Assembly: GCA_026991575.1 (NCBI GenBank)
Contig: JALXBF010000118.1
Span: 1-64,000 of the forward strand
Source of the DNA: Planctomycetota bacterium
Lineage (GTDB): Bacteria; Planctomycetota; Planctomycetia; JALXBF01
Length of the DNA stretch: 64,000 nucleotides
Reading direction: 5' to 3'
Below, in pieces: positions 14,135-56,038 of this stretch. Position numbers and translations under genes: made by a program. The notes below the pieces were generated by a model. That model was given only the letters and a program-made list of their open reading frames with translations. It made no database searches and had not been told where the DNA came from. Each line of letters begins with the position of its first letter. Positions within the stretch are counted from its first letter, which is position 1.

Positions 14135-14251
14135 GTGAAACGCCGCAAGTGTGTGTTAGGTTTCCCGCGGCTACACGTCATTCTGGTGGACGTGCAGCGG
14201 ACGGATCGAGCAACCGCTTCGGGAGTCACCATCGCGCGATGGAAAAGCTGA
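14135..14251 (+). CDS. Possible 38-residue leader peptide overlapping the sigma gene
   Basis: AAGGAGG lies four bases before a GTG. The frame runs 38 codons and stops at 14251, 12 bases inside the ECF sigma gene in another frame. This arrangement fits translational coupling or a regulatory leader peptide. The peptide is basic (starts VKRRKC) with no known motif. Alternatively the Shine-Dalgarno sequence could serve a longer sigma form starting at the GTG at 14149, but the spacing of about 18 is poor. Confidence 0.35.
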   Translation: MKRRKCVLGFPRLHVILVDVQRTDRATASGVTIARWKS

Positions 14252-14760
14252 CGGACGAGGTCCGTACGAAGCTGGAACGGTTGTACCGTGAGCGGGGACG
14301 GGAGCTCTGGGCCCGCCTGTACGCGGTATGCCTGGATGCGGACCTTGCGATGGACGCGTTGCACGAAGCGTTTGCCCGTTTTGCCCCTGCGGCTCAAAAC
14401 GGCGCACTCCGTAATCCGGCGGCCTGGTTGTACAAGACCGCGCGGAACTGGCTGCTGGACCAGCGGCGAGGCGAGCGACGCGTTCAGCCGGGTCGGCTAC
14501 GCTTGGCCGAGCCGAACGATCCGTCCAGCGAGGTGTTGCGCAGCGAGCTGCACGAGACGGTCCGCGATGCGCTGGCCAGCTTATCTGAAGCGGATCGTGA
14601 ATTACTTGTGCTCCGCTACGCGCTCGGCTGGCCAAGCAAGCGGATTGGCTCGCTACTTGGTATTTCTCCTGCAGCCGTCGACATGCGGTTGAGCCGGGCG
14701 CGCGACCGGCTGGCCGAACGACTGCGACAGCGAGGTGTGCACGATGGCACGGCACGATGA
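14239..14760 (+). CDS. RNA polymerase ECF sigma factor
   Basis: This 173-residue sigma-70 family factor contains only regions 2 and 4. Region 2 covers about residues 8-80 (AMDALHEAF and AAWLYKTARNWLLDQRR). Region 4 covers about 110-165 (SEADRELLVLRYALGWPSKR and helix-turn-helix ISPAAVDMRLSRARDRL). It should direct RNA polymerase to its own regulon. The next gene overlaps its end by 17 bases and encodes a membrane protein placed like an anti-sigma factor. The ATG at 14239 gives the usual length. Confidence 0.88.
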   Translation: MEKLTDEVRTKLERLYRERGRELWARLYAVCLDADLAMDALHEAFARFAPAAQNGALRNPAAWLYKTARNWLLDQRRGERRVQPGRLRLAEPNDPSSEVLRSELHETVRDALASLSEADRELLVLRYALGWPSKRIGSLLGISPAAVDMRLSRARDRLAERLRQRGVHDGTAR

Positions 14761-15274
14761 GAAGACAAGCGGCGGCGATGTGGAGCAGCTTCTGCGGCAG
14801 TTCTTCGCACGCGAGCTGCCCGCGAGCCGTCCCCTGCCGCCAGTGCCCGCCCTGGCACCCGACCACTCGGGCAAGCGGCCGCGGCCCCGGCGCCGACCCG
14901 GACTGCGGACCGTGGCGGGTGTGGCGCTGCTCGCCGCTGCCAGCATTGCTGTCGCGGTCGTGTTGTGGCCCGTCCGGGGACAGCCCGGGCCCGATCGTTC
15001 GACCCCGGCACCGGATCAGGCGAACGCGGTCCCGGTCGGGCCGGCTGATGCCGAGCGGGCGCCGGTGACGGCGAGGGTCGTGCCGTACGTGGTGTTCGAC
15101 GAGCTGGAGGGGAGCCAGGTGGAGCAGGTGCAGCGGGCCGACGGATCGACAATGCTGATCCGTGCCCAGACAGGCTGGCGCCATTTGCTGGTGCGTGACC
15201 AGCGAGAGGGCGTGGCCACATGGTACGCCTTTCCGGTCATCGAGATTGCTGGATCGGTTACCAGCGCGGAATGA
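14744..15274 (+). CDS. Single-pass membrane protein, candidate anti-sigma factor
   Basis: This encodes 176 residues. It has an N-terminal cytoplasmic segment of about 55 residues (acidic, then Pro/Arg-rich), one transmembrane helix (about 57-75, VAGVALLAAASIAVAVVLW) and a C-terminal outer domain. The topology and the 17-base overlap with the ECF sigma gene fit an anti-sigma factor, but there is no zinc-binding HxxxCxxC motif, so the assignment rests on position. A GTG at 14735 is an alternative start. The outer domain ends just before the PDZ protein gene, which may act on it or with it. Confidence 0.7.
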   Translation: MARHDEKTSGGDVEQLLRQFFARELPASRPLPPVPALAPDHSGKRPRPRRRPGLRTVAGVALLAAASIAVAVVLWPVRGQPGPDRSTPAPDQANAVPVGPADAERAPVTARVVPYVVFDELEGSQVEQVQRADGSTMLIRAQTGWRHLLVRDQREGVATWYAFPVIEIAGSVTSAE

Positions 15275-15309
15275 CGACAAGCAAGAGAAACGAACAGCGG
15301 AGGATTGCC

Positions 15310-16623
15310 ATGAAACGGTGGTTGGGTGTTGTGCTAGTCGGTGCGTTGACCGTGCCCGCATGGGCACAGGAGCCGAAGGACCAGCCCGAGCGCAGTGAGG
15401 TTCAGGTCGAGGCGCCCGGCACTCGGGTTCGCAAGGATGCGAAGGGGAACGTCGAGGTCGAGGCTCCGGCGGCTCGGGTGCGGAAGGACGCGAAGGGTAA
15501 CGTCCGGGTCGAAGCGCCGGGCGTGGTCGTGGAGCGAGACGAGCGGGGCGTTCGGGTCCGCACGCCATTCGGCGTCGTGAACGTGCCGCGCGACGAGCAA
15601 CGCGACGGGCAGCGCCGGGAGCGAGGCGGTGAACAGGAGGAAGCTAGGTTTGTCGTCGTCGGCGAACGGCGTGCGTACCTTGGCGTCATGATTGGCCCCG
15701 TGCCCGAGGTGGTGGTGGCTCAGTTTCCTGACGTGTTCAAAGAGGGACGCGGGGCGTTGGTGACAAGCATCGCGGCAGACTCACCGGCTGCCAAGGCGGG
15801 GATCAAGCCGCTGGACATCATCGTGCAAGTGGGTGAGCAGAAGGTCCGCTCGCCGGAGCATCTCAGCGAGCTGATCCGTCAGCACAAGCCAGGTGAGAAG
15901 GTAAGCCTGTGGGTGCTCCGTCGGGGCAAGCTGGAACGCGTCGAAGCGGAGTTGGGCGAGCGGCTCGAGCCGATCCGCCCGTTCGGACACCGGTTCGGTC
16001 CTTCGGGACGACTGCGTCGCATGCCCGGCCGACCGGCGCCATTCCGTCCCGGACCGCCTCATCAGATGCCCCCGCTGCGGCCCTTCCGCGGCTTCGTCCA
16101 GCTGTCGATCCGGACGATCGACGACAACAAGGTCGCGGTACACGCCGAATGGAGCGCCGAAGGGCAGCGCCGTAGCCTGGAGGTAGAAGGTTCGATTGAA
16201 GAAGTGCGTGAGAAGATCGAGCAGGCGGATATCCCCGAGGACGTCAAGAAGATGATCCTCCGCCACCTCGATCGGCCCCGCGGACGCGGGTTCGGGTGGC
16301 GCTTCCGGATGGAGCCGTTCTTCCGTTTTGACGACGAGGACAGTTTCTTCTTCGGGCCCCGCTTCTGGCTCGACCGCGACGGCCGCCGACTGGACATCTG
16401 GATCCAGCCAGGCAGCCCTGACGCTGAGGCCATCGAAGAGTGGCTCGAGGATCTTCCCGACGACCTGCCCCCGGAACTGCGGGAGCGGATCGAGCGGGCG
16501 CTACGCCGGATGTTGAGGCTGTACGGCGGAGACGAAGAGCGGCACGAGCATCGCGAGCAGCACCATGAGCGGCACCGTCACCAACGGCAACGTCGGGAAC
16601 GTGACGAGAACCGCGTCCTCTGA
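15310..16623 (+). CDS. Exported PDZ-domain protein with 17-residue repeats
   Basis: This encodes 437 residues. The signal peptide ends near residue 20 (VPAWAQ). Residues 31-81 hold three repeats of 17 residues with consensus V-x-VEAP-x3-VRKDAKGN. A PDZ domain follows at about 115-215 (YLGVMIGP, VTSIAADSPAAKAGIKPLDI and VRSPEHLSELIRQHKPGEKV), then a Pro/Arg linker, a mixed domain and a His/Arg/Glu-rich tail. No protease domain is visible, so it is probably a periplasmic scaffold or sensor. CGGAGGATTGCC precedes the ATG. It is third in the sigma operon, 35 bases after the previous gene. Confidence 0.82.
   Translation: MKRWLGVVLVGALTVPAWAQEPKDQPERSEVQVEAPGTRVRKDAKGNVEVEAPAARVRKDAKGNVRVEAPGVVVERDERGVRVRTPFGVVNVPRDEQRDGQRRERGGEQEEARFVVVGERRAYLGVMIGPVPEVVVAQFPDVFKEGRGALVTSIAADSPAAKAGIKPLDIIVQVGEQKVRSPEHLSELIRQHKPGEKVSLWVLRRGKLERVEAELGERLEPIRPFGHRFGPSGRLRRMPGRPAPFRPGPPHQMPPLRPFRGFVQLSIRTIDDNKVAVHAEWSAEGQRRSLEVEGSIEEVREKIEQADIPEDVKKMILRHLDRPRGRGFGWRFRMEPFFRFDDEDSFFFGPRFWLDRDGRRLDIWIQPGSPDAEAIEEWLEDLPDDLPPELRERIERALRRMLRLYGGDEERHEHREQHHERHRHQRQRRERDENRVL
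15400..15552 (+). repeat. 51-base in-gene tandem repeat, three copies
   Basis: Three successive 51-base units in the PDZ gene encode the 17-residue repeat. Copies one and two are close at the protein level; copy three diverges in its second half. They probably arose by in-frame duplication. Confidence 0.8.
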
Positions 16624-18341: not shown

Positions 18342-18362
18342 GAGAAGAAGAAGAAGAAGAAG
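18342..18362 (+). repeat. AAG trinucleotide tract
   Basis: Seven successive GAA/AAG triplets lie 65 bases upstream of the Cys-rich peptide gene. A tract like this between promoter and gene could be length-variable and affect expression, but nothing here shows that. Confidence 0.7.
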
Positions 18363-18426
18363 ATAATGCATGCAGATCGGTCTGAGTCGGTTGTATCGAT
18401 GGTATGACTAACGGGGAGGACCTGTC

Positions 18427-18846
18427 ATGAGGCTGTGCATCCACATCCTCGCCTCAGTGTGCCTCGGGGCGCTCGCCGCGACTCTGTCCGACCTTGGCCT
18501 GGGACGCCTCCATCGTCCAGCTCGGGCGGAGCTCGAACGGGTGACCGGCAGCTCGTTCTACGAGACCGGGGCCTATCTGGTCATGTGTCCCGATCCGTTC
18601 AACTGCTTGGGCCAGGGCAACTGCGCGTCTCGATCCTGCCTGAGATGTCCGGTTGTCCTGAACATGCAAGTGGCCAGCGGCGGGTTCAACCGTATCATCG
18701 TGACTACCCAGCAATGTCCGCCGGGCGTGCAGCGGGGTGTCTGTGTCACTGGTCCCAATGGCTGCATGTGCGACGGTCCTACTTTCTCGAACGTGCCCTG
18801 CGGCTCGTACAACCAGATCGTGATGTTTGATGATCAGTCAGGCTAA
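18427..18846 (+). CDS. Exported Cys-rich protein with ten mature cysteines
   Basis: This encodes 139 residues. A hydrophobic N-terminus (residues 1-30) acts as signal or anchor. The rest contains ten Cys, including CPDPFNCLGQGNC, SCLRC, QQCPPG and a terminal group VCVTGPNGCMC. No known domain is recognised. GGGGAGGACC before the ATG is a strong ribosome site. It is first in a four-gene plus-strand run with a C39-like peptidase/DUF1573 fusion, an anchored protein and a PMT glycosyltransferase. A second locus at 53.5-58.6 kb has an equivalent gene, also with ten mature Cys. I infer it is the substrate of the locus. Confidence 0.8.
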   Translation: MRLCIHILASVCLGALAATLSDLGLGRLHRPARAELERVTGSSFYETGAYLVMCPDPFNCLGQGNCASRSCLRCPVVLNMQVASGGFNRIIVTTQQCPPGVQRGVCVTGPNGCMCDGPTFSNVPCGSYNQIVMFDDQSG

Positions 18847-18899
18847 GGTCTGCAAGACGAACGGGGACCGCCTCTGGACTGGTGCGTGAGGTAAGGTGC

Positions 18900-20291
18900 A
18901 TGTCCGGAATAGCGCTACCTTTTGTTTTGTGTGCGTTGGCGTTGGTGCCGGCAGGGCAGTTTGTCTTGAGATCCGAGGGGAAGGAGTCGAACTGCGCGGT
19001 GGTGGCGTTAACCGTGTGCCTACGCCTGTGGGGACACGACGTCAGCTGTGCGGCCGTGGCGAAGGAACTGGGCTTGTCCGATGGGAGTCGCGGCAGTGCG
19101 GATGCGGTGTCGCTTGCAGACCTTGAGCGTGCGGCAAGGCGTTGGGAGCCAAACGTGGAAGCACGGAAGGCAGGCCTGGCCACGCTTGCACGCGTCCCAC
19201 TCCCGGCCGTCGCACATGGCGTAATCACCGCCGACGGTCAGCCAGAACGACTAACCGGCGGGCATTACGTCGTTCTGCTGCGGCTTGACGCAGAGCAGGC
19301 GGTCGTGGCAGATCCGCTTACGATGCAGGTGGCCACGGTGCCGAGGTCTAGATTTGCTGCCTTCTACGACGGGTATGTGCTGGCGAGGGAGCGAAGGGGG
19401 GCCCGCTGGGCTATCCTCTTCGTATGTTTCACCACACTGGCCGCCGTTCTGCTGAGGCTGGCAAGACGTCTCGGGATCAGGGAAACCATATCCATCGTGC
19501 TTGCGTCCGGCCTCGCCCTTGGTACGACTGCCGGCTGCAGCCGGGAGCCGACACCGTTCTCGCCAGCGGAGGAAGGGGAGAGCCCACTTGAAGCGCTCCC
19601 CGCACAGCTTGATCTGGGGACAGTGTCGATCGGTGAGACCGTGACCAGGAGTGTTCGCCTGCGGAACGTCAGCTCAAAGCGGCTGCGTCTGAAACTGGTC
19701 GATCCCGGCTGCGCATCGTGCACGGCAGAACTGGTCCAGACGGAGCTGTCACCGGGAGAAACGACGGAGCTGCGTGTCAGTGTGGCATCGGACCGCGCGC
19801 CGGCTGGCCCATTCTACCGGACGATCGGGGTGGCGACCCGGGAAGGTAAGGCAGTACTGACGATCGAAGTCTCTGCCCTTGTGGAAGGATTGAAAACGGA
19901 GCCGTACACCTTCCGCTGCGGCTCGAACGCGGAGACACCACCGCCTCTCAAGGGCAAACTTATCCTGGCCGAGCGACTTGCGTCAGACTCCGTCTCCCTG
20001 CCCGAGGTCGAACTGGAGGACCTGTTGGCCAAGCAGACGTCGACGTTCAAGCCCTGCATGGCCGTGGGTGGAGAAGCCACCTGGGGGCCGTGGCAGAAAG
20101 TGCGTCTGCCCATGCCTTGCTATGAGCGGGAGTTTACGGTCCCACTTGTCTGGGTCAAGGACGCTGCGTGTGTTCCCAGACAGGTCCTGGCCCACGTCGA
20201 ATGTACGGTACGCGGTCAGCGAATACGCCACCAGACACTACTGCGGATCGTTCCCGCTGTAACCGTGACGGCTCGCCCCGCGGACCGATGA
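18900..20291 (+). CDS. C39-like cysteine peptidase fused to a DUF1573 lipoprotein
   Basis: This encodes 463 residues. After an N-terminal hydrophobic segment (1-22), residues 28-162 resemble a C39 papain-like peptidase: Cys32 in ESNCAVVAL, His122 in TGGHYVVLL and Asp138 in VVADPL. One transmembrane helix follows (about 170-187). Residues 191-213 then read like an internal lipoprotein signal (VLASGLALGTTAGC). A DUF1573 domain (about 235-330) has paired Cys in DPGCASC, followed by a further beta domain. The composition suggests fusion of two exported proteins. C39 domains cleave leader peptides after double Gly, but no GG site is obvious in the neighbouring peptide. GAGGTAAGG sets the ATG. Confidence 0.75.
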   Translation: MSGIALPFVLCALALVPAGQFVLRSEGKESNCAVVALTVCLRLWGHDVSCAAVAKELGLSDGSRGSADAVSLADLERAARRWEPNVEARKAGLATLARVPLPAVAHGVITADGQPERLTGGHYVVLLRLDAEQAVVADPLTMQVATVPRSRFAAFYDGYVLARERRGARWAILFVCFTTLAAVLLRLARRLGIRETISIVLASGLALGTTAGCSREPTPFSPAEEGESPLEALPAQLDLGTVSIGETVTRSVRLRNVSSKRLRLKLVDPGCASCTAELVQTELSPGETTELRVSVASDRAPAGPFYRTIGVATREGKAVLTIEVSALVEGLKTEPYTFRCGSNAETPPPLKGKLILAERLASDSVSLPEVELEDLLAKQTSTFKPCMAVGGEATWGPWQKVRLPMPCYEREFTVPLVWVKDAACVPRQVLAHVECTVRGQRIRHQTLLRIVPAVTVTARPADR

Positions 20292-20317
20292 GCCGGCACG
20301 TCGGGGAGGTAGACGAG

Positions 20318-21436
20318 ATGAGTGGAAGCGAGGCTGTGGACAAGATCGACCGAAGGGCCGCTTGCCACATGCTATGGGTCACCGTGTGGACCCTCGGGAC
20401 GGGGTTGGCGATTGCGAGCCAGGCGCTGGCTGCCGAAACCGGGCCAAGACCTACCAACAAGCCAGCGAAGCTGTCGCTCGAACAACTGCGTGACTGTCTG
20501 TCGCGGTTCTACGCCCAACTGCACGCCTTGGACGTTGAGTACGAAGTCCTGGACAGCCCGGACTCAGAACCTCATCGGGTGCGATACGCCTTCAAGGGTG
20601 ACAAACGCTACACGGCGCGCACCGGTCCTGGCCAGGAGGAGCCGGAATTTGTTGGCGGCATCGTCAACGGCACGTACTGGTATCTGCAGCCGGAGCAGCT
20701 TACGGCCGGCATCGTGCCTGTCGAGCAGGCAGGCGACGCACTTCACTACGACGCATTTGTGGATGCCCTGCACATTGCCTTGGCGGATGAGGCGAAGTCG
20801 GAGGCGTACCTTCGTCCCCGGTTTCTGCCGCTGGCGCTGGACGCACCAACAGCGCAATGGAAGGTCCGCCCGAAGCTGGAAGAAGTCGATGGACATCTGT
20901 GCCATGTGCTGGAGGGCAAGGCTCTCACGCTGTGGGTCGACACGGAGCTCGGTTGTGCTCCGCGTTATGCCGAGTTGTACACGGAAGTGGATGGCACCAG
21001 GCGGCTTGTGGGATCGTACCACTACGCCGATCTGGCCGACGCTGGTAGCGGGGTCTATTTGCCACGGCTGGTGGAGATCACTGCGTACTCGGTTAGCGGC
21101 AAGGAGAGCAGGCCGAGCAGACGGCAGACCCTCAAAGTGTTACGTATCGCCGTCGGGGACGATGTGCATGACGATCTTTTCGAACCGGCGTTTCCCCGGG
21201 GCACGACGGTGCTCGATGCGACGAAAGGGGAACGGTACATCGCCGGGCCGGCCGACGCGGGCGTGACACGATTGACTGAACAGGCGCGCGACGCGCTGAC
21301 GCGTCCGGGCGCACGAGGGCCTGTCGGCCCCCGGCCGACTACGTGGATCGTTCTCGGGGCCGGTGTAGCGGTCGTGGCCATCGGGTTGCTGGCGCTGTGG
21401 ATCCGAAGCCGAGCCGGCGCTAGGGGCGGCTCGTAA
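20318..21436 (+). CDS. Exported protein with C-terminal membrane anchor (paralogue 1)
   Basis: This encodes 372 residues. A signal peptide (about 18-38) is followed by an ectodomain of about 290 residues and a C-terminal helix with a basic tail (WIVLGAGVAVVAIGLLALWIRSR). The ectodomain has LolA-like alternating strands (EYEVLDSPDSEPHRVRYAF, GTYWYLQPEQL, ALTLWVDTELGC), which may mean lipid or lipopeptide binding, but this is uncertain. CGGGGAGGTAGACG favours the ATG at 20318; an ATG at 20288 overlapping the previous stop is the alternative. Proteins of the same layout lie at 24837, 56039 and 60560, and the one at 56039 again precedes a PMT gene. Confidence 0.75.
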   Translation: MSGSEAVDKIDRRAACHMLWVTVWTLGTGLAIASQALAAETGPRPTNKPAKLSLEQLRDCLSRFYAQLHALDVEYEVLDSPDSEPHRVRYAFKGDKRYTARTGPGQEEPEFVGGIVNGTYWYLQPEQLTAGIVPVEQAGDALHYDAFVDALHIALADEAKSEAYLRPRFLPLALDAPTAQWKVRPKLEEVDGHLCHVLEGKALTLWVDTELGCAPRYAELYTEVDGTRRLVGSYHYADLADAGSGVYLPRLVEITAYSVSGKESRPSRRQTLKVLRIAVGDDVHDDLFEPAFPRGTTVLDATKGERYIAGPADAGVTRLTEQARDALTRPGARGPVGPRPTTWIVLGAGVAVVAIGLLALWIRSRAGARGGS

Positions 21437-21484
21437 CGCGCATCCGGGGTGAGAACGGGCTGGCATCGCGGGGGATTGGTCAGC

Positions 21485-23554
21485 ATGTACGGGGAGTGGC
21501 GTCTTGCAAGAACGGTGATCTTTACGGCGGCCGTCGCCCTGCCGTTCTACTGGTGGTGGTTTGGACCTGTTGTCTCGTCGGACCAGTGGGTGGTCCGCGG
21601 CTTACTGGCGGGGGCGGTGTACGGCGCCGTGGCCTGGTACGCGTGGGTCCGTCGGTCGAGTTCCGGCTCTGGTCCGGATAACGATATCGTCGAGGGAGAA
21701 CGCGACGCCGATGCTCAGGCAAGTACGGCCATGCGGCTGGGTAGGCGGTTCGCCATTGGTGTTGCCGTATTGCACGTGCTGCTCGTTGTCTGGATTGCCT
21801 GGGCACACAGCCCCACAGCGCACGAGACGCGCTATCTCGTGGCCGGTCTGAGCCACTGGGAGACGGGTCATTTCGATGTAGCCCGCGTGAACCCACCACT
21901 GGTACGGCTGTGGCAGGCTCTTTTTCCCCTTCTGGCGGGCGCTAAGACGGACTGGTCTGTGTATCCAGCCGATGAGCCGACCGCTGGCCTTGGTGGCTAT
22001 CGGCCCGACCTGGTGATGACAGCACGCTGGATCAGGCTCAATGGTGAAGCAAGCCACTGGTATGTCTTTCTTGGCCGCTGCGCGAACATACCGTTGTCAC
22101 TGCTGGGGGCGTGGGTATGTTGGCGGTGGGCGTTGGAGCTCTTCGGGCTGCGCGCCGCATGCTGCGCGGTGACGCTGTGGTGCCTGTGCCCGTTCATGCT
22201 CACTTACGCTGCACTGACGAGCCCGGATCTTGGCGGCGCTGCACTCGGAATCGCAGCAGCCTACGTGTGCTGGCGCTGGGCACGCGTGCCCAACTGGTCC
22301 CGTGCCCTGGCGTTCGGCGGTGCGCTCGGTGCCGCGATCGCTGCACGCACGACGAACATTGCGCTGTTGCCCGCCTGCGTTGCCTGTGTCTTCACGTCGA
22401 GCCGACCGCGGCGGCGTCGGGCTCTGGAGCTTGCGGCTGCCATGGGCGTCGCACTGCTGGTGCTCAACGCAACCTACGGGTTCGAAGGCACGTTTCGGCC
22501 GCTGGGCTCGTACCAGTTCATCAGTCGCTTCTTCGCCGGGCATAACTTTTCCAGACCGGTGGTGGGCAATCGCTTCCGAGACCTGATCGGTTGGCTGCCG
22601 GTGCCCCTGCCAGAGGATTTCGTCAAGGGTGTTGATCTGCAGAAGGCCGACTTCGAGGGCGTATCGCACTGGCCATGGTCCTACATGGCTGGGGTCTGGC
22701 GCGAACAGGCGTGGTGGTACTTTTACCTGTATGCCCTTGCTGTCAAGCTGCCGGCGGGGTCGCTGATCCTCCTGGCGGCTGCCGTGATTGGATTTCTTGT
22801 CCGAAAGACGGCACGGTCGGATGTGATAGCAGAGGTACTGCTCGCCTGCGCCATTGCGGCCTTTTTCCTGTTGGTTAGCAGCCAAGCTGGGTTCAGCAGG
22901 GAATCACGTTACATCGTGGGGGTGATCCCGTTTCTCTATGTGTGGGGTAGCCGCCTCGCGATCAATCCATTGCGTCGATCAAAGGAGCCGGTGCTGTGGC
23001 CAGTTCTGGTGACGGTCACTGCCGTCAGCGTGCTCACCGTCTACCCGCACTGCTATTCCTATTTCAATGCCTTCGTAGGAGGTCCATTCGGTGGTCCCCG
23101 CTGTCTTTGGGGCGGTAATATCGACTCGGGCCAAGATGCGGTGTATTTGTCACGCTGGGCCAAAGCCCACCCGGAGGCTCGGCCACTGTTCGTTGTTGTC
23201 CAAGGGCAGACGGTCTATCCGATCCATTTAAGCGGCCTGCGTGACTGGCAACCGATCCCGGCCGACCCGCGCAGCCCGGAGCCACACCCGAAATACCCTC
23301 CCCGCCCGGGCTGGTACGCGATCAGCGTCAGCGAACTGTACTATCCATCGGATGCGTACGCATACCTGCGGCAGCTCAAGCCCGTCGCCTATGCCGGCTA
23401 CTCGATCTACATCTTTCACCTGACCGAGCGCGACGTTGAAGCGCTAAGGCCGCTGTTTGCTATGATCGAGTCGCAGTCCGAACCAGATGAGCCTCCCGGC
23501 TCGGACAGTGCGTCCGACACCGGCGATTCGCCGTCCGACACGTCGCGGGATTGA
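21485..23554 (+). CDS. PMT/GT39-like membrane glycosyltransferase
   Basis: This encodes 689 residues with about 11-12 hydrophobic helices and a soluble C-terminal domain. The first outer loop (HETRYLVAGLSHWETG, then ARVNPPLVRLW) matches the acidic-loop region of GT-C enzymes that use polyprenyl-linked sugars. GSYQF and LPVPLPEDFVKGVDLQ recur in the second PMT gene at 54012, so the two are paralogues. The expected role is transfer of a sugar to an exported protein or glycan. It is last in the Cys-rich peptide locus, 49 bases after the anchored protein. The ATG at 21485 begins the first helix. Confidence 0.82.
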   Translation: MYGEWRLARTVIFTAAVALPFYWWWFGPVVSSDQWVVRGLLAGAVYGAVAWYAWVRRSSSGSGPDNDIVEGERDADAQASTAMRLGRRFAIGVAVLHVLLVVWIAWAHSPTAHETRYLVAGLSHWETGHFDVARVNPPLVRLWQALFPLLAGAKTDWSVYPADEPTAGLGGYRPDLVMTARWIRLNGEASHWYVFLGRCANIPLSLLGAWVCWRWALELFGLRAACCAVTLWCLCPFMLTYAALTSPDLGGAALGIAAAYVCWRWARVPNWSRALAFGGALGAAIAARTTNIALLPACVACVFTSSRPRRRRALELAAAMGVALLVLNATYGFEGTFRPLGSYQFISRFFAGHNFSRPVVGNRFRDLIGWLPVPLPEDFVKGVDLQKADFEGVSHWPWSYMAGVWREQAWWYFYLYALAVKLPAGSLILLAAAVIGFLVRKTARSDVIAEVLLACAIAAFFLLVSSQAGFSRESRYIVGVIPFLYVWGSRLAINPLRRSKEPVLWPVLVTVTAVSVLTVYPHCYSYFNAFVGGPFGGPRCLWGGNIDSGQDAVYLSRWAKAHPEARPLFVVVQGQTVYPIHLSGLRDWQPIPADPRSPEPHPKYPPRPGWYAISVSELYYPSDAYAYLRQLKPVAYAGYSIYIFHLTERDVEALRPLFAMIESQSEPDEPPGSDSASDTGDSPSDTSRD

Positions 23555-23839: not shown

Positions 23840-24296
23840 AGAGGGTCTGGTTCCCCGAGACCGAAAGCCTGCACGCCCGATTTCCGTCATGATCGTCAAC
23901 GGCACGAACGATCCAATTGTTCCTTTCAACGGAGGTCACGTGCGATTGTTTCGCTTTGGTCATAGCCGGGGGCGGGTCCTGTCGACGGCCGCAACTGTCG
24001 AATGGTTTCGGCGGCACAATGCGTGTACGCCTACACCCATCAGAACACGGCTCGAGGATGAAGACGCGACGGACGGAGCGACGGTGGAGGTGGAAACGTA
24101 TGGCGGAGGCATGGAGGGGACGGAAGTGGTCCTGGTGAAGGTAGTCGGTGGCGGACATACCTGGCCCGGGGGCAGGCAGTATTTGCCTCGGCGGCTTGTC
24201 GGAGGCGTTTGCCGGGACATCAATGCCAGCGAAATGATTCTGGATTTCTTCTTGCGCCACGCGCGGAAGCGGATGCCTGTTGCGAAGCCCAGGTGA
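23840..24296 (+). pseudogene. C-terminal fragment of a PHB-depolymerase/feruloyl-esterase-like hydrolase
   Basis: Readable from about 23840, with VMIVNGTNDPIVPFNGG as the typical mid-to-late alpha/beta-hydrolase segment (Asp region). TAATVEWFRRHNAC and KVVGGGHTWPGG (catalytic His) follow, then a normal C-terminus. The first two thirds, including the GxSxG nucleophile elbow, are absent upstream. It therefore cannot be a working esterase of this family and is a remnant. The preceding 280 bases (23555-23839) show no gene. Confidence 0.65.
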
Positions 24297-24836: not shown

Positions 24837-25859
24837 TTATCCCTGCTGCTCGTTGCACGCTTGTCTTCGCTGGACCAAGCGGTATCTCAGCCACCACAGC
24901 ACTGCAGACAGCGCCGTAGCCAGGATGCCAAGCCACAACCATCTGCCCCGGTCGGCAGGCGGCTGGTGAATCCTTGCGTGGTCGATCCCGAACGCAGCGA
25001 GCGTGAACTCTTCGTCGCTGGGTGGTTGCTCCGGAATTCGGAACTCAAACTCACTACGCCACCAGGCATAGCCGTCCAATTCTTCGTTCTTCACCCTCCA
25101 GCGCATGTGGACTAACTTGGGGACGGGAGCCGGACGGAACGTTTCGTCATATTCGATAGTGAGCATGGCAGGTTCACCGGTGTCACCTTCCCGCCACTCC
25201 TCGCCTTTAACGATCGCCCACATCCGCTCGGGATCGACCCAGACGGAGCCGACGCGGCGCCTGAGCGGGTGGTTGATCTTGTACTCGGCCTTGAGCAGAG
25301 AGGCATCCTCTAATCCAGTCCATTCGATCGATTGAATTTCCACCGAGTCGGACCACCACGAGAAGGCGACGGACCAATCGGGACCGGGCTTGATGAAGTA
25401 CGCCCGCGCCGTGTAGTGGGAAAGTATCCAGCACGATTCTCGCACCTCGCTCACGCCGGCAGCGTACTCGGATACATACCATCGTCCGTCAGTCGCCTTG
25501 CCCAGAAGGGCCGAGCCCCGTGGCCCGTACAGCAAAGCCTTCCACGTTGGACCGGATAGACCACGGTCCCAACGTCGCTCGATCATGTAGCCATGTCGCC
25601 CGTTTTGTTTGATCTGAATCGTTGCGTCCACCCACAGTTTGTCTGTTCCTTCCGCGCCCAATCGCTCTCGCACCGTACCACAGAGGCGCGTGCCGACGCG
25701 CAGGTATTCTTCCATCGCGCTGCGGATCGTCCGTGCCAATACCTCCGGGGACTTAATTGCTTGCGCGTCTTGCGCGGGTAGGCTGTCAACAACGAGGACA
25801 GCGATGGTGGTGGCCAAGCCGATACACAATGCCGACTTTGGTGTGCTGGCAGACGCCAC
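24837..25859 (-). CDS. Exported protein with C-terminal membrane anchor (paralogue 2)
   Basis: This encodes 340 residues from a GTG preceded by GGGGGGAGA. The signal peptide (about 10-30) is followed by a beta-rich ectodomain. A C-terminal helix with basic tail (WLWLGILATALSAVLWWLRYR) ends the protein. The ectodomain ends with EEFTLAAFGI just before the anchor, a feature I associate with planctomycete LolA-like exported proteins. It has the same plan as the genes at 20318, 56039 and 60560. A degenerate Cys-rich peptide reading frame lies 205 bases upstream on the same strand, reproducing the peptide/anchored-protein order of the full loci. Confidence 0.75.
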   Translation of the reverse strand: MASASTPKSALCIGLATTIAVLVVDSLPAQDAQAIKSPEVLARTIRSAMEEYLRVGTRLCGTVRERLGAEGTDKLWVDATIQIKQNGRHGYMIERRWDRGLSGPTWKALLYGPRGSALLGKATDGRWYVSEYAAGVSEVRESCWILSHYTARAYFIKPGPDWSVAFSWWSDSVEIQSIEWTGLEDASLLKAEYKINHPLRRRVGSVWVDPERMWAIVKGEEWREGDTGEPAMLTIEYDETFRPAPVPKLVHMRWRVKNEELDGYAWWRSEFEFRIPEQPPSDEEFTLAAFGIDHARIHQPPADRGRWLWLGILATALSAVLWWLRYRLVQRRQACNEQQG

Positions 25860-53494: not shown

Positions 53495-54025
53495 CTACCT
53501 GCGCTTCGCCTCCGCGCCGGCGGCCGCCGCATCAGCGGGCTGCTCGCTGTCATTGCCGCCCTGGCCCCCACTCCGAGCTTCCGATGTCACGTCATCGGAC
53601 GTTGGTCCCTCGGCGGCAGTCACCACGATCGTCCCCTGAACCACGTACAGCTTCCGCCCGTCGGTCACATAGACCTCCACAGGGTACGAAAAGCTCTCCC
53701 CAGCACGCGGCGTATGAACACGAAAGCGGATCGCCGTACTTTGTTGCGGAGCGAGCCGGACCGGCACGCTGCTCACCCTCCGCATTGCTCACCCGCCGTT
53801 CGTCCCGACCACCACAACCTCCTCCTCGGCCACGTTCCGCACGGTCAGCTCCACCACCATCGGTTCCTCCGGAACCGGCGCACGCACTTGTACCTCAGAC
53901 GGGTCAAGCACAGCGGGCAGCAAGCTGCTCGGCAGCCAGGCTGCCACACCGGCAACGAACACGCCAGCCAAAACCATCGCCGCCCAACCGGGTATCGACT
54001 GGATCAGAAAGTTAACCCTCCGCAT
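53495..54025 (-). CDS. DUF1573-like exported protein interrupted by an in-frame TGA
   Basis: Read through, this gives 176 residues. The N-terminal anchor (about 9-32, GWAAMVLAGVFVAGVAAWL) is followed by a DUF1573-like immunoglobulin domain. VVELTVRNVAEEEVVVVGTN leads to GG, then TGA (53789-53791), then in the same frame AMRRVSSVPVRLAPQQST and FRVHTPRAGESFSYPVEVYV. The TGA falls where DUF1573 proteins carry their first conserved Cys (compare DPGCASC in the protein at 18900). It could be a nonsense mutation of TGC/TGT or a selenocysteine codon. The ATG at 54025 overlaps the end of the PMT gene by 14 bases. Confidence 0.65.
53746..53783 (-). promoter_or_regulatory. Stem-loop just after the in-frame TGA (SECIS-like candidate)
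   Basis: Starting six bases after the TGA, GCGGAG pairs with CTCCGC and GAGC with GCTC. The 14-base apical part contains GGTC at 27-30 bases from the TGA. Bacterial SECIS elements lie at this distance with a G near the apical loop. Any GC-rich gene can form such stems, so this is suggestive only. Confidence 0.3.
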
Positions 54026-55892
54026 CGTAACGCACCTCCAATACACGCCTCGAACCCTTCTGCACCGAATCGCCCGGAGCAGACTCTTGCGTCTGACGGG
54101 GCTTCGCTGTCCCCCACAGGATCCGGGCCAGGCGGGCCGATTCTTCAGGCGTAACCTCGTAGACTAGCACGGCTGCTCCCAACGTCGCAATGGGACGCAT
54201 GTGGCGCGTGTACTCGATCACACGAGACGTCGGCACGTTGGGATAAAGTGGCATGTATCGGTGGGGATCGATGATGTAGATCCCCGCCGGCGGTCCCTCG
54301 CCCCGGAACTCATCCGGCGGCAGCGGCCGCGGCACATCGATCGGCCAGTGGCTTCCTAGCCCGCAGGGATCCTGAAACAGTGCGTACACTGTGCGGCCTG
54401 CATCGCGGTAGCGCTGCACCAACTCTCGTATGAAAAAGTAGTCTTCCCCACCAGAAACCGACGGGCCGGCGAGCTGCAGATAGCCGGACTTGCTGCCGCC
54501 CACCAACTCGTTCAGATGTCCGTGAAAGTGCGGCGCTACACTGGCCACGGACCAGATCTGCCAGCTGAGCAGCCCGGCCAGCGCCAACGGGCGCCACAGC
54601 CCGAGGCGCCAGCCGGCGGCCAGCCCGCTCGTCCACACGATGAGGTACGGCAGCACCGGTGTCGTATACCGCAAGTGAACAGTGAGCGTCTTGTGGTACG
54701 AAAGCGTAGCCAGGACCAGCAAGACGGGGCCAAGTTCCAGCAACGTGGCACGTAGGGTGCCACCGCGCGGGCATAGTAACGCCGCGATCGTTCTCCACGC
54801 AAAGCACAGCCAGAACGCAACCGGCAACTTCGCCATCAGTCCGTACAGGTAGAAATACCATACACCTCCGTTGTGACGTCTACCTGCCACCCACGTGTCC
54901 CGAGGCACCCTGGTATCATGCAGTTGGAGATCCAGCCCAAGCACATAAGCATCGGGCAGCGGCACCGGGAGCCTGTTTACGACACCGCCCGTCACCGTTG
55001 CAGCCAGCGTTTGCAACCGGCGCAGCGAATCGCTACGAAACTGGTACGACCCCAGCGTTTGCAGGCGAGCGGTCCCCGCGTAACCGCAATACACGACCGT
55101 GCAGGCAACAGCCGCGGCAAAGACCAGCAGCACTGTACGCTCCAGTGCCCGTTGACGCTGGCGGCGCACCACGGCGATCCCTACCTCAACCAGCTCAACA
55201 ACCAGGTAAAACACTGCCAGCAACAGCACGGTGAACTTGGTCAACAGCCCCAGACCAACGGTGAGCCCGAACGCAGCCGCTCGCCCCGTACCAGGCTGTT
55301 CTCGGTAGCGGAAGTACGCCCAGCCGGCTGCCGCCGCCATCGCCGCCGTCAGACCGTCCGGGTTCAGGCACCCGGACCAATGCAGCAGTTCGGGATTCAG
55401 CACGTAGAACAAGACAGCTAGCAGGCCCGCTGCAGGCCCATGCGCTTTCCTGCTCCAAGACCACACGGCAATCGGCCCGATCCCGCAGGCAAGGGCAAGC
55501 GCGACGCGCGCCCACCTGAGCCAGCTCAGCGACTCGGGCAGGTTAGCCGAAAACGTAGCAATGGCAAACGGGAAGACGGTGTACGCATCCGGTCGGTCGA
55601 CGTAGGTGGTCCAGCTTTCCCAGAGGTTCTTTCCCTCCGGCACGAGCCAGACCGAACCCAGCCCGGCCACGATCCGTGACAGCGGTGGGTTAACCGGGTA
55701 AATGTCAAACCGGCTCAACTGGTAAATCGCGTAGGCCGAACACAGGTGCGCCGGCTCATTTACGTTCGGCGCGTGGACGGTTGCTGACCAGAGCACCGCA
55801 GCAAGCCACAGGGCCACCAATGTGCCGACGGTCACCCGCTCAAGAACGGACGGCTGTGCTACAGTTCCTCGTGCGCCTGCGTCAGGGCTCAT
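54012..55892 (-). CDS. PMT/GT39-like membrane glycosyltransferase (second copy)
   Basis: This encodes 626 residues with about 11 hydrophobic helices and a C-terminal outer domain. The first loop, NEPAHLCSAYAIYQLSRFDI then PVNPPLSRI, gives the acidic residue and NPPL also seen in the protein at 21485. GSYQFRSDS and NRLPVPLPDAYVLGLDLQ match GSYQFIS and GWLPVPLPEDFVKGVDLQ there. The two are paralogues. It should transfer a sugar from a lipid carrier to an exported acceptor. GAGGAGG before the ATG at 55892 sets the start. It follows an anchored-protein gene, as in the first locus. Confidence 0.82.
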   Translation of the reverse strand: MSPDAGARGTVAQPSVLERVTVGTLVALWLAAVLWSATVHAPNVNEPAHLCSAYAIYQLSRFDIYPVNPPLSRIVAGLGSVWLVPEGKNLWESWTTYVDRPDAYTVFPFAIATFSANLPESLSWLRWARVALALACGIGPIAVWSWSRKAHGPAAGLLAVLFYVLNPELLHWSGCLNPDGLTAAMAAAAGWAYFRYREQPGTGRAAAFGLTVGLGLLTKFTVLLLAVFYLVVELVEVGIAVVRRQRQRALERTVLLVFAAAVACTVVYCGYAGTARLQTLGSYQFRSDSLRRLQTLAATVTGGVVNRLPVPLPDAYVLGLDLQLHDTRVPRDTWVAGRRHNGGVWYFYLYGLMAKLPVAFWLCFAWRTIAALLCPRGGTLRATLLELGPVLLVLATLSYHKTLTVHLRYTTPVLPYLIVWTSGLAAGWRLGLWRPLALAGLLSWQIWSVASVAPHFHGHLNELVGGSKSGYLQLAGPSVSGGEDYFFIRELVQRYRDAGRTVYALFQDPCGLGSHWPIDVPRPLPPDEFRGEGPPAGIYIIDPHRYMPLYPNVPTSRVIEYTRHMRPIATLGAAVLVYEVTPEESARLARILWGTAKPRQTQESAPGDSVQKGSRRVLEVRYDAEG

Positions 55893-56038
55893 GTTGCCCC
55901 TCCTCGCGTGCAGGCTCGTCCGACTGGCTGGCGCGGCTACCACAGGTGATTTGCCGGCCGTTTGGTCATGCCCACCTCAGACCCGTGGCCTGGGCCGCGA
56001 TCGCCGCTTTGTCCATCGCGTGTCCTGAGCCCGACGGT

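What the first reader, a model, noticed from the sequence alone, without database searches (positions are those of the whole stretch)
18427..23554. Four-gene locus around an exported Cys-rich peptide
A ten-Cys exported protein is followed in tight order by a C39-like peptidase/DUF1573 fusion, a signal-peptide/C-terminal-anchor protein and a PMT-family glycosyltransferase, all on one strand with strong ribosome sites. Peptidase plus glycosyltransferase around a Cys-rich substrate suggests an undescribed maturation and display pathway. I know of no named system with this composition.
Basis: partly seen in the sequence, partly recalled or inferred. Interest (0 to 1): 0.82.

Follow-up and report, generated by a model that had tools for sequence, protein, structure and literature searches.

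The report
Exported cysteine-rich peptide maturation gene cluster
This is one copy of a gene neighbourhood, apparently undescribed and recurrent in planctomycete bacteria, in which a small disulfide-type peptide is exported and then probably trimmed outside the cytoplasm by a bacteriocin-type protease, beside a membrane-anchored carrier-like partner.

Summary
In detail: four same-strand genes at 18427-23554 encode a Sec-type Cys-rich peptide (10 Cys after the signal), an exported C39 peptidase-DUF1573 fusion, an anchored LolA-fold protein and a PMT_2 glycosyltransferase.

The neighbourhood is recurrent. Of 53 stand-alone C39 loci in the class, chosen by the peptidase alone (window included), 36 have a LolA-like gene within 4 kb, 33 a same-strand exported Cys-rich peptide within 2.5 kb (about 1.7 expected) and 21 an unnamed alpha/alpha-toroid protein; five ABC-type C39 loci have none. 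PMT is only a loose partner (11 of 53).

Relatives' peptides carry a signal sequence followed by a bacteriocin-like double-glycine leader (VSxxEAxxIxGG). Best reading: a Sec-exported peptide matured by a periplasmic C39 peptidase, not primarily a glycosylation/display pathway. The window's own leader (AELERVTGS) fits the anchor positions, but not significantly.

In two genomes, the window's included, repeated peptide-LolA cassettes share near-identical leaders and LolA C-termini while peptide core and LolA N-terminus diverge together, suggesting cognate pairs (chaperone, immunity or receptor). What the peptide does is unknown. No description was found in the literature searched. Rated a new variant of double-glycine peptide processing.

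The parts
18427..18846 (+). Cys-rich exported peptide precursor, 139 aa: signal-type N-terminus, candidate double-glycine-type leader ending AELERVTGS, core with 10 Cys
   Evidence: no Pfam or NCBIfam family above cut-off; core fits the Cys motif of six peptides beside C39 genes elsewhere, shuffle frequency 0.002, motif bounds partly post hoc
18547..18552 (+). codons of Gly41-Ser42, candidate cleavage site after Ser42, by analogy with GG/GA/GS sites of C39 substrates
   Evidence: best position of the leader matrix, but score 0.5 is not above background (6 of 21 control ORFs as high)
18900..20291 (+). exported C39 peptidase - membrane helix - DUF1573 fusion; Cys/His/Asp triad intact
   Evidence: the C39 profile's best solved relative is the double-glycine protease domain 6MPZ, 4.8e-16; same fusion in L192, L211, L216, L217 and, judged from its sequence and alignment to gene 2, L037
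20318..21436 (+). LolA-fold protein with N-terminal signal sequence and C-terminal membrane anchor (372 aa from ATG 20318; ORF can start at 20288)
   Evidence: AlphaFold model mean pLDDT 65 (much of residues 190-290 above 80), Foldseek best 3buu LolA superfamily 8.4e-8; start choice
21485..23554 (+). PMT_2 (GT-C type) membrane glycosyltransferase, loosely associated
   Evidence: Pfam PMT_2 29.9 bits against cut-off 26.1; 15 paralogous hits in this genome

Best explanation
An exported-peptide maturation module restricted, as far as tested, to one class of Planctomycetota. (1) The precursor crosses the inner membrane by Sec (inferred from its signal sequence). (2) A stand-alone, membrane-anchored C39 peptidase, itself exported, cuts the precursor after a double-glycine-type leader in the periplasm and frees a Cys-rich, presumably disulfide-bonded core (leader shown in relatives; cleavage inferred). 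(3) A LolA-fold protein anchored by its C-terminus binds the cognate core as chaperone, immunity or receptor protein; inferred from pairing and from joint divergence of core and LolA ectodomain in repeated cassettes. (4) A toroid protein present in many copies, though not in the window cluster, may modify or fold the core; the PMT enzyme may glycosylate it or the cell surface; both roles are open. My preferred use for the product is a secreted peptide acting between cells (bacteriocin-like or recognition) with the LolA-like protein as cognate partner; about 0.35 for that last step.
For: Gene content recurs: 36/53, 33/53 and 21/53 stand-alone C39 loci carry LolA, peptide and toroid, against 0/5 ABC-type loci. 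Strict GG-leader peptides: 22 in 339 kb within 3 kb of C39 against 4 in 2.02 Mb elsewhere, three of those 4 (L043, L051 twice) still in loci of the system. Leader matrix of 32 peptides: G-2 in 32, [LIV]-4 in 30, E-8 in 25, A-7 in 24. C39 relation to double-glycine proteases, triad intact in the window and most others. Cassette mosaics: L182 (own genome) leader 99% / core 67% nt, L068 98% / 52%, identity returning to about 95-100% in the C-terminal part of LolA; milder leader-over-core conservation in L051, L038 and, in a one-contig genome, L237. Precedent that a Sec-exported periplasmic C39 is active: FapD (PMC5557850).
Against: The window peptide's leader is not above background by the matrix and its core homology is suggestive only. 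The Gln six residues before the catalytic Cys, seen in ABC-type C39 (L207, L213), is not kept in the stand-alone family (mostly Trp; Glu in the window by reading the sequence). 17 of 53 C39 loci lack a detected LolA and 20 lack a detected peptide, some at contig ends. The two sharp mosaics are in draft genomes. No experiment supports any step.
Confidence: 0.65

Rival explanations
1. Antagonism: the matured peptide is a bacteriocin-like toxin and the anchored LolA-like protein its immunity protein; cassette exchange swaps toxin-immunity pairs. This is a more specific form of the best explanation.
For: Conserved leader, divergent core and a co-diverging membrane-anchored partner; more LolA-like genes than detected peptides in some clusters, like orphan immunity genes (L050, L060).
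Against: No toxin homology; Cys-rich cores are also typical of structural and signalling peptides; a chaperone or receptor would co-diverge too.
Confidence: 0.35
2. Structural or display role: the disulfide-rich core is built into the Cys-rich planctomycete wall, matrix or holdfast, the LolA-like protein ferries it across the periplasm and PMT glycosylates it.
For: Planctomycete cell walls are reported to hold Cys-rich proteins (PMC8567305); LolA proteins are carriers; PMT lies beside some clusters more than chance (6 against 0.43 expected); FapD matures a surface fibre system.
Against: PMT in only 11 of 53 loci; no anchor or sorting signal noticed in the peptides; patchy occurrence and fast core divergence do not suit a housekeeping wall component.
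Confidence: 0.25
3. The C39 peptidase and peptide are a real pair, but LolA-like and PMT genes are neighbours of other function (e.g. envelope stress sensing, as the fold is shared with RseB) and the pairing reflects co-regulation.
For: Foldseek also lists RseB and MucB; 17 of 53 C39 loci have no detected LolA.
Against: Peptide-LolA units are duplicated together and diverge together.
Confidence: 0.15
4. In the window itself the peptide is not the substrate: it has lost or never had the leader, and the cluster is a decayed or repurposed copy.
For: Leader score at background; clear sequence matches to the peptide found in no other genome.
Against: Intact triad, reading frames, ribosome sites and codon pattern; same kind of C39-DUF1573 fusion beside Cys-rich exported peptides in L037, L192, L216, L217; anchor residues E-8, L-7, V-4, G-2, S-1 present.
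Confidence: 0.12

Closest known systems
Double-glycine peptides with peptidase-containing ABC transporters (PCAT; ComA, LanT type)
   Same: C39 cysteine protease domain; leader with G-2, [GAS]-1, hydrophobic -4, E-8; small, often Cys-rich cores
   Different: No ABC transporter; precursor carries its own Sec-type signal; protease is exported and stand-alone; -6 Gln not conserved; LolA-like and toroid partners
FapD, periplasmic C39 peptidase of the Pseudomonas Fap amyloid system
   Same: Sec-exported stand-alone C39 peptidase acting in the periplasm; that class of C39 was described as yet to be characterised (PMC5557850)
   Different: Substrates here are short GG-leader Cys-rich peptides; no Fap-type gene matched in the window cluster; NCBIfam FapD model only E 0.0028, 17 bits against cut-off 330, for L049 and none for the window
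LolA/LolB/RseB fold superfamily
   Same: Predicted fold (3buu 8.4e-8)
   Different: C-terminal membrane anchor, about 340-440 aa, variable N-terminal part, paired with a peptide gene; Pfam LolA_like reaches only 1 of 16 members
Alpha/alpha-toroid enzymes and binders (transcobalamin, GH88/GH105, terpene cyclases)
   Same: Toroid protein of related clusters has this general fold
   Different: No Foldseek hit below 0.001; invariant His/Cys set not tied to a known active site; no Pfam or NCBIfam family; absent from the window cluster

Membership tests
C39 double-glycine peptidase | C39 domain with Cys-His-Asp triad | tested here: met
   PF03412 50.1 bits against cut-off 22; C/H/D in alignment
C39 double-glycine peptidase | oxyanion-type Gln six residues before the Cys | tested here: not met
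   Glu in the window (read), mostly Trp in the stand-alone family, Gln in ABC-type L207 and L213; that this Gln is the oxyanion residue is from general knowledge
PCAT export system | C39 domain fused to an ABC transporter | tested here: not met
   Gene 2 is C39 + helix + DUF1573, 463 aa; no ABC gene among the four
Double-glycine leader peptide | leader consensus ending G-[GAS] before the core | tested here: inconclusive
   clear in relatives; window peptide matches anchor positions but scores at background
FapD / Fap amyloid system | match to the FapD model | tested here: not met
   no NCBIfam FapD hit for the window protein; weak, far below cut-off, for L049
LolA lipoprotein carrier | LolA fold | tested here: met
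   Foldseek 3buu 8.4e-8 on a model of moderate confidence
LolA lipoprotein carrier | soluble periplasmic carrier without membrane anchor | tested here: not met
   C-terminal hydrophobic helix in the model and in relatives
PMT/GT-C glycosyltransferase | PMT_2 domain above curated cut-off | tested here: met
   29.9 against 26.1 bits; activity not testable here
Lanthipeptide-type RiPP | LanC-like cyclase or other known RiPP enzyme in the cluster | tested here: not met
   no such family in the window genes; no LanC among the listed Foldseek matches of the toroid of relatives

The most novel reading that the evidence does not exclude
A new class of polymorphic exported-peptide system: Sec-exported double-glycine Cys-rich peptides matured in the periplasm, each inherited with a cognate LolA-fold membrane partner, whose core and ectodomain are exchanged as one cassette between a fixed leader and a fixed membrane anchor.
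Probability: 0.35. Interest if true: 0.88.

Novelty: new variant of a known kind. Interest (0 to 1): 0.72.

Why it matters
It would give the poorly understood class of periplasmic C39 peptidases (FapD being the known case, its target called unclear in PMC5557850) a large set of likely natural substrates with a readable cleavage site. It also exposes a peptide repertoire in planctomycetes that family libraries do not name, with a testable hypothesis of cognate peptide-partner pairs.

Tried and rejected
Single-sequence search with the window peptide in 298 class genomes: only marginal hits (E about 5e-4), none beside C39 genes. Pairwise shuffles and a profile of six similar peptides: window peptide not significant; a Cys-spacing motif fits at shuffle frequency 0.002, but its bounds were widened to include the window and one of 35 other peptides also fits. 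The genome-contig scan with the toroid profile mostly returned a second toroid subfamily without C39 or LolA. PMT as core component: rejected as loose. Tblastn of gene 2 against plasmids: none. Strict C39 search at phylum level: only three genomes, all in the window's class. Literature searches found no description; the library holds open-licence papers only. Order-level search was uninformative: the order holds one genome.

Full report
The four genes are as described. Window 18427-18846 encodes a 139-residue protein with a signal-type start and ten Cys after it; 18900-20291 an exported C39 peptidase joined through a membrane helix to DUF1573; 20318-21436 a protein with a signal sequence and a C-terminal anchor; 21485-23554 a PMT_2 glycosyltransferase. 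Start sites are chosen from ribosome-binding sites, and codon-position composition supports the peptide gene as coding. No family model names genes 1 or 3.

The window's order holds only this genome. Searching 298 genomes of its class with gene 3 gave distant hits, and the DNA around them showed the same neighbourhood with very different gene sequences: a short exported Cys-rich peptide, a stand-alone C39 protein, one or more LolA-like anchored proteins, sometimes PMT, and often an unnamed alpha/alpha-toroid protein.

To avoid circularity, loci were then chosen with a C39 profile alone (DNA). Of 53 stand-alone C39 loci including the window, 36 have a LolA-like gene within 4 kb, 21 a toroid within 4 kb, 33 a same-strand exported Cys-rich peptide within 2.5 kb, and 11 a PMT within 6 kb; five loci whose C39 lies in a long, ABC-transporter-size frame have none. 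The peptide criterion is met by chance about 0.03 times per such stretch, so about 1.7 of 53 would be expected. In 12 genomes 35 of 61 LolA-like hits lie within 3 kb of a C39 hit against 0.22 expected, although the profiles and genome choice favour this; PMT gives 6 of 55 within 6 kb against 0.43. At E <= 1e-27 the C39 type was found in only three of 294 genomes drawn across the phylum, all in the window's class.

The relatives' peptides explain the peptidase. After the signal sequence comes a leader with G at -2 in 32 of 32, G or A at -1 in 28, L/I/V at -4 in 30, E at -8 in 25 and A at -7 in 24, the arrangement of double-glycine leaders cut by C39 domains of bacteriocin exporters (general knowledge). 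G at -2 was in part a selection criterion; the other positions were only loosely constrained. The C39 profile's best solved relative is a double-glycine protease domain (6MPZ, 4.8e-16). Strict leader-bearing peptides are 33 times denser near C39 than elsewhere (22 in 339 kb against 4 in 2.02 Mb). The catalytic Cys, His and Asp are intact in the window and in most relatives; eight loci carry a second C39 domain in which both Cys and His are replaced, so an inactive partner copy recurs. One residue differs: the Gln at -6, kept in ABC-type C39 but not here.

The window's own peptide is the weak point. The matrix places its best site at AELERVTGS, which has E-8, L-7, V-4, G-2 and S-1, but the score is within background, and sequence similarity of its core to other cluster peptides is not significant. 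A Cys-spacing motif drawn from six peptides beside C39 genes, one of them in the window's own genome (L184), fits with shuffle frequency 0.002, with partly post hoc bounds. The window belongs to a C39-DUF1573 branch also seen in L192, L211, L216 and L217 and, from its sequence, L037.

The strongest functional clue lies in repeated cassettes. In the window's own genome (L182, contig 74) and in L068, peptide-LolA units occur more than once. Upstream DNA, signal and leader are about 95-100% identical between copies, with no synonymous change in signal and leader; within about five codons after the cleavage site identity falls to roughly 40-70%, stays low through the core and the N-terminal part of the LolA-like gene, and returns to about 90-100% towards its C-terminus. 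Leaders are also more conserved than cores in L051, L038 and the L237 array, the last in a one-contig genome. Joint divergence of core and LolA ectodomain, between homogenised ends, is what a cognate pair would show. It does not say whether the pair is toxin-immunity, substrate-chaperone or ligand-receptor.

Structure: the window's gene 3 model (mean pLDDT 65) matches the LolA superfamily (3buu, 8.4e-8). The toroid of a related cluster models well (pLDDT 87) but matches nothing closely; it keeps invariant His, Cys and Glu residues. The window's own genome has a C39-toroid fusion in L182.

Known relatives: PCAT systems share leader and protease but not the compartment or transporter; FapD shares the compartment and shows that an exported C39 can be active (PMC5557850), but its model does not match. 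No paper found describes the combination. I rate it a new variant of double-glycine peptide processing with unusual partners; calling it categorically new needs the pairing model shown by experiment.

Noticed in passing
L069-L147, e.g. L117:7787-10714: A second, larger subfamily of the toroid protein has no C39 or LolA nearby; in L117, L125 and L085 it follows a roughly 530-aa membrane protein (no Pfam family in L117), and in L117 a rhomboid-family gene lies upstream.
   Followed up: partly
L047, L050, L051, L182, L195, L198, L201, L219: Second C39 domains beside an active one have lost both catalytic Cys and His; a recurrent inactive partner, reminiscent of the C39-like domain of HlyB.
   Followed up: partly
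window 24837-25859 (-): Signal-sequence protein with a C-terminal anchor, topologically like gene 3; only a 19-column profile match to the LolA-like family (E 1.7e-4).
   Followed up: partly
window 54015-55976 (-): Another PMT-family protein; this genome has about 15 such hits.
   Followed up: no
window 18344-18363: Short GAA-type repeat about 65 bases upstream of the peptide gene.
   Followed up: no
window 23889-24296 (+): Short ORF that looks by eye like a fragment of an esterase or PHB-depolymerase; no Pfam match.
   Followed up: partly
window 14149-16623 (+): ECF-type sigma factor followed by a small protein and a PDZ-domain protein.
   Followed up: no
L224:3047-6726: Two nearly identical peptide-LolA units with no C39 found within the 14 kb fetched.
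   Followed up: no
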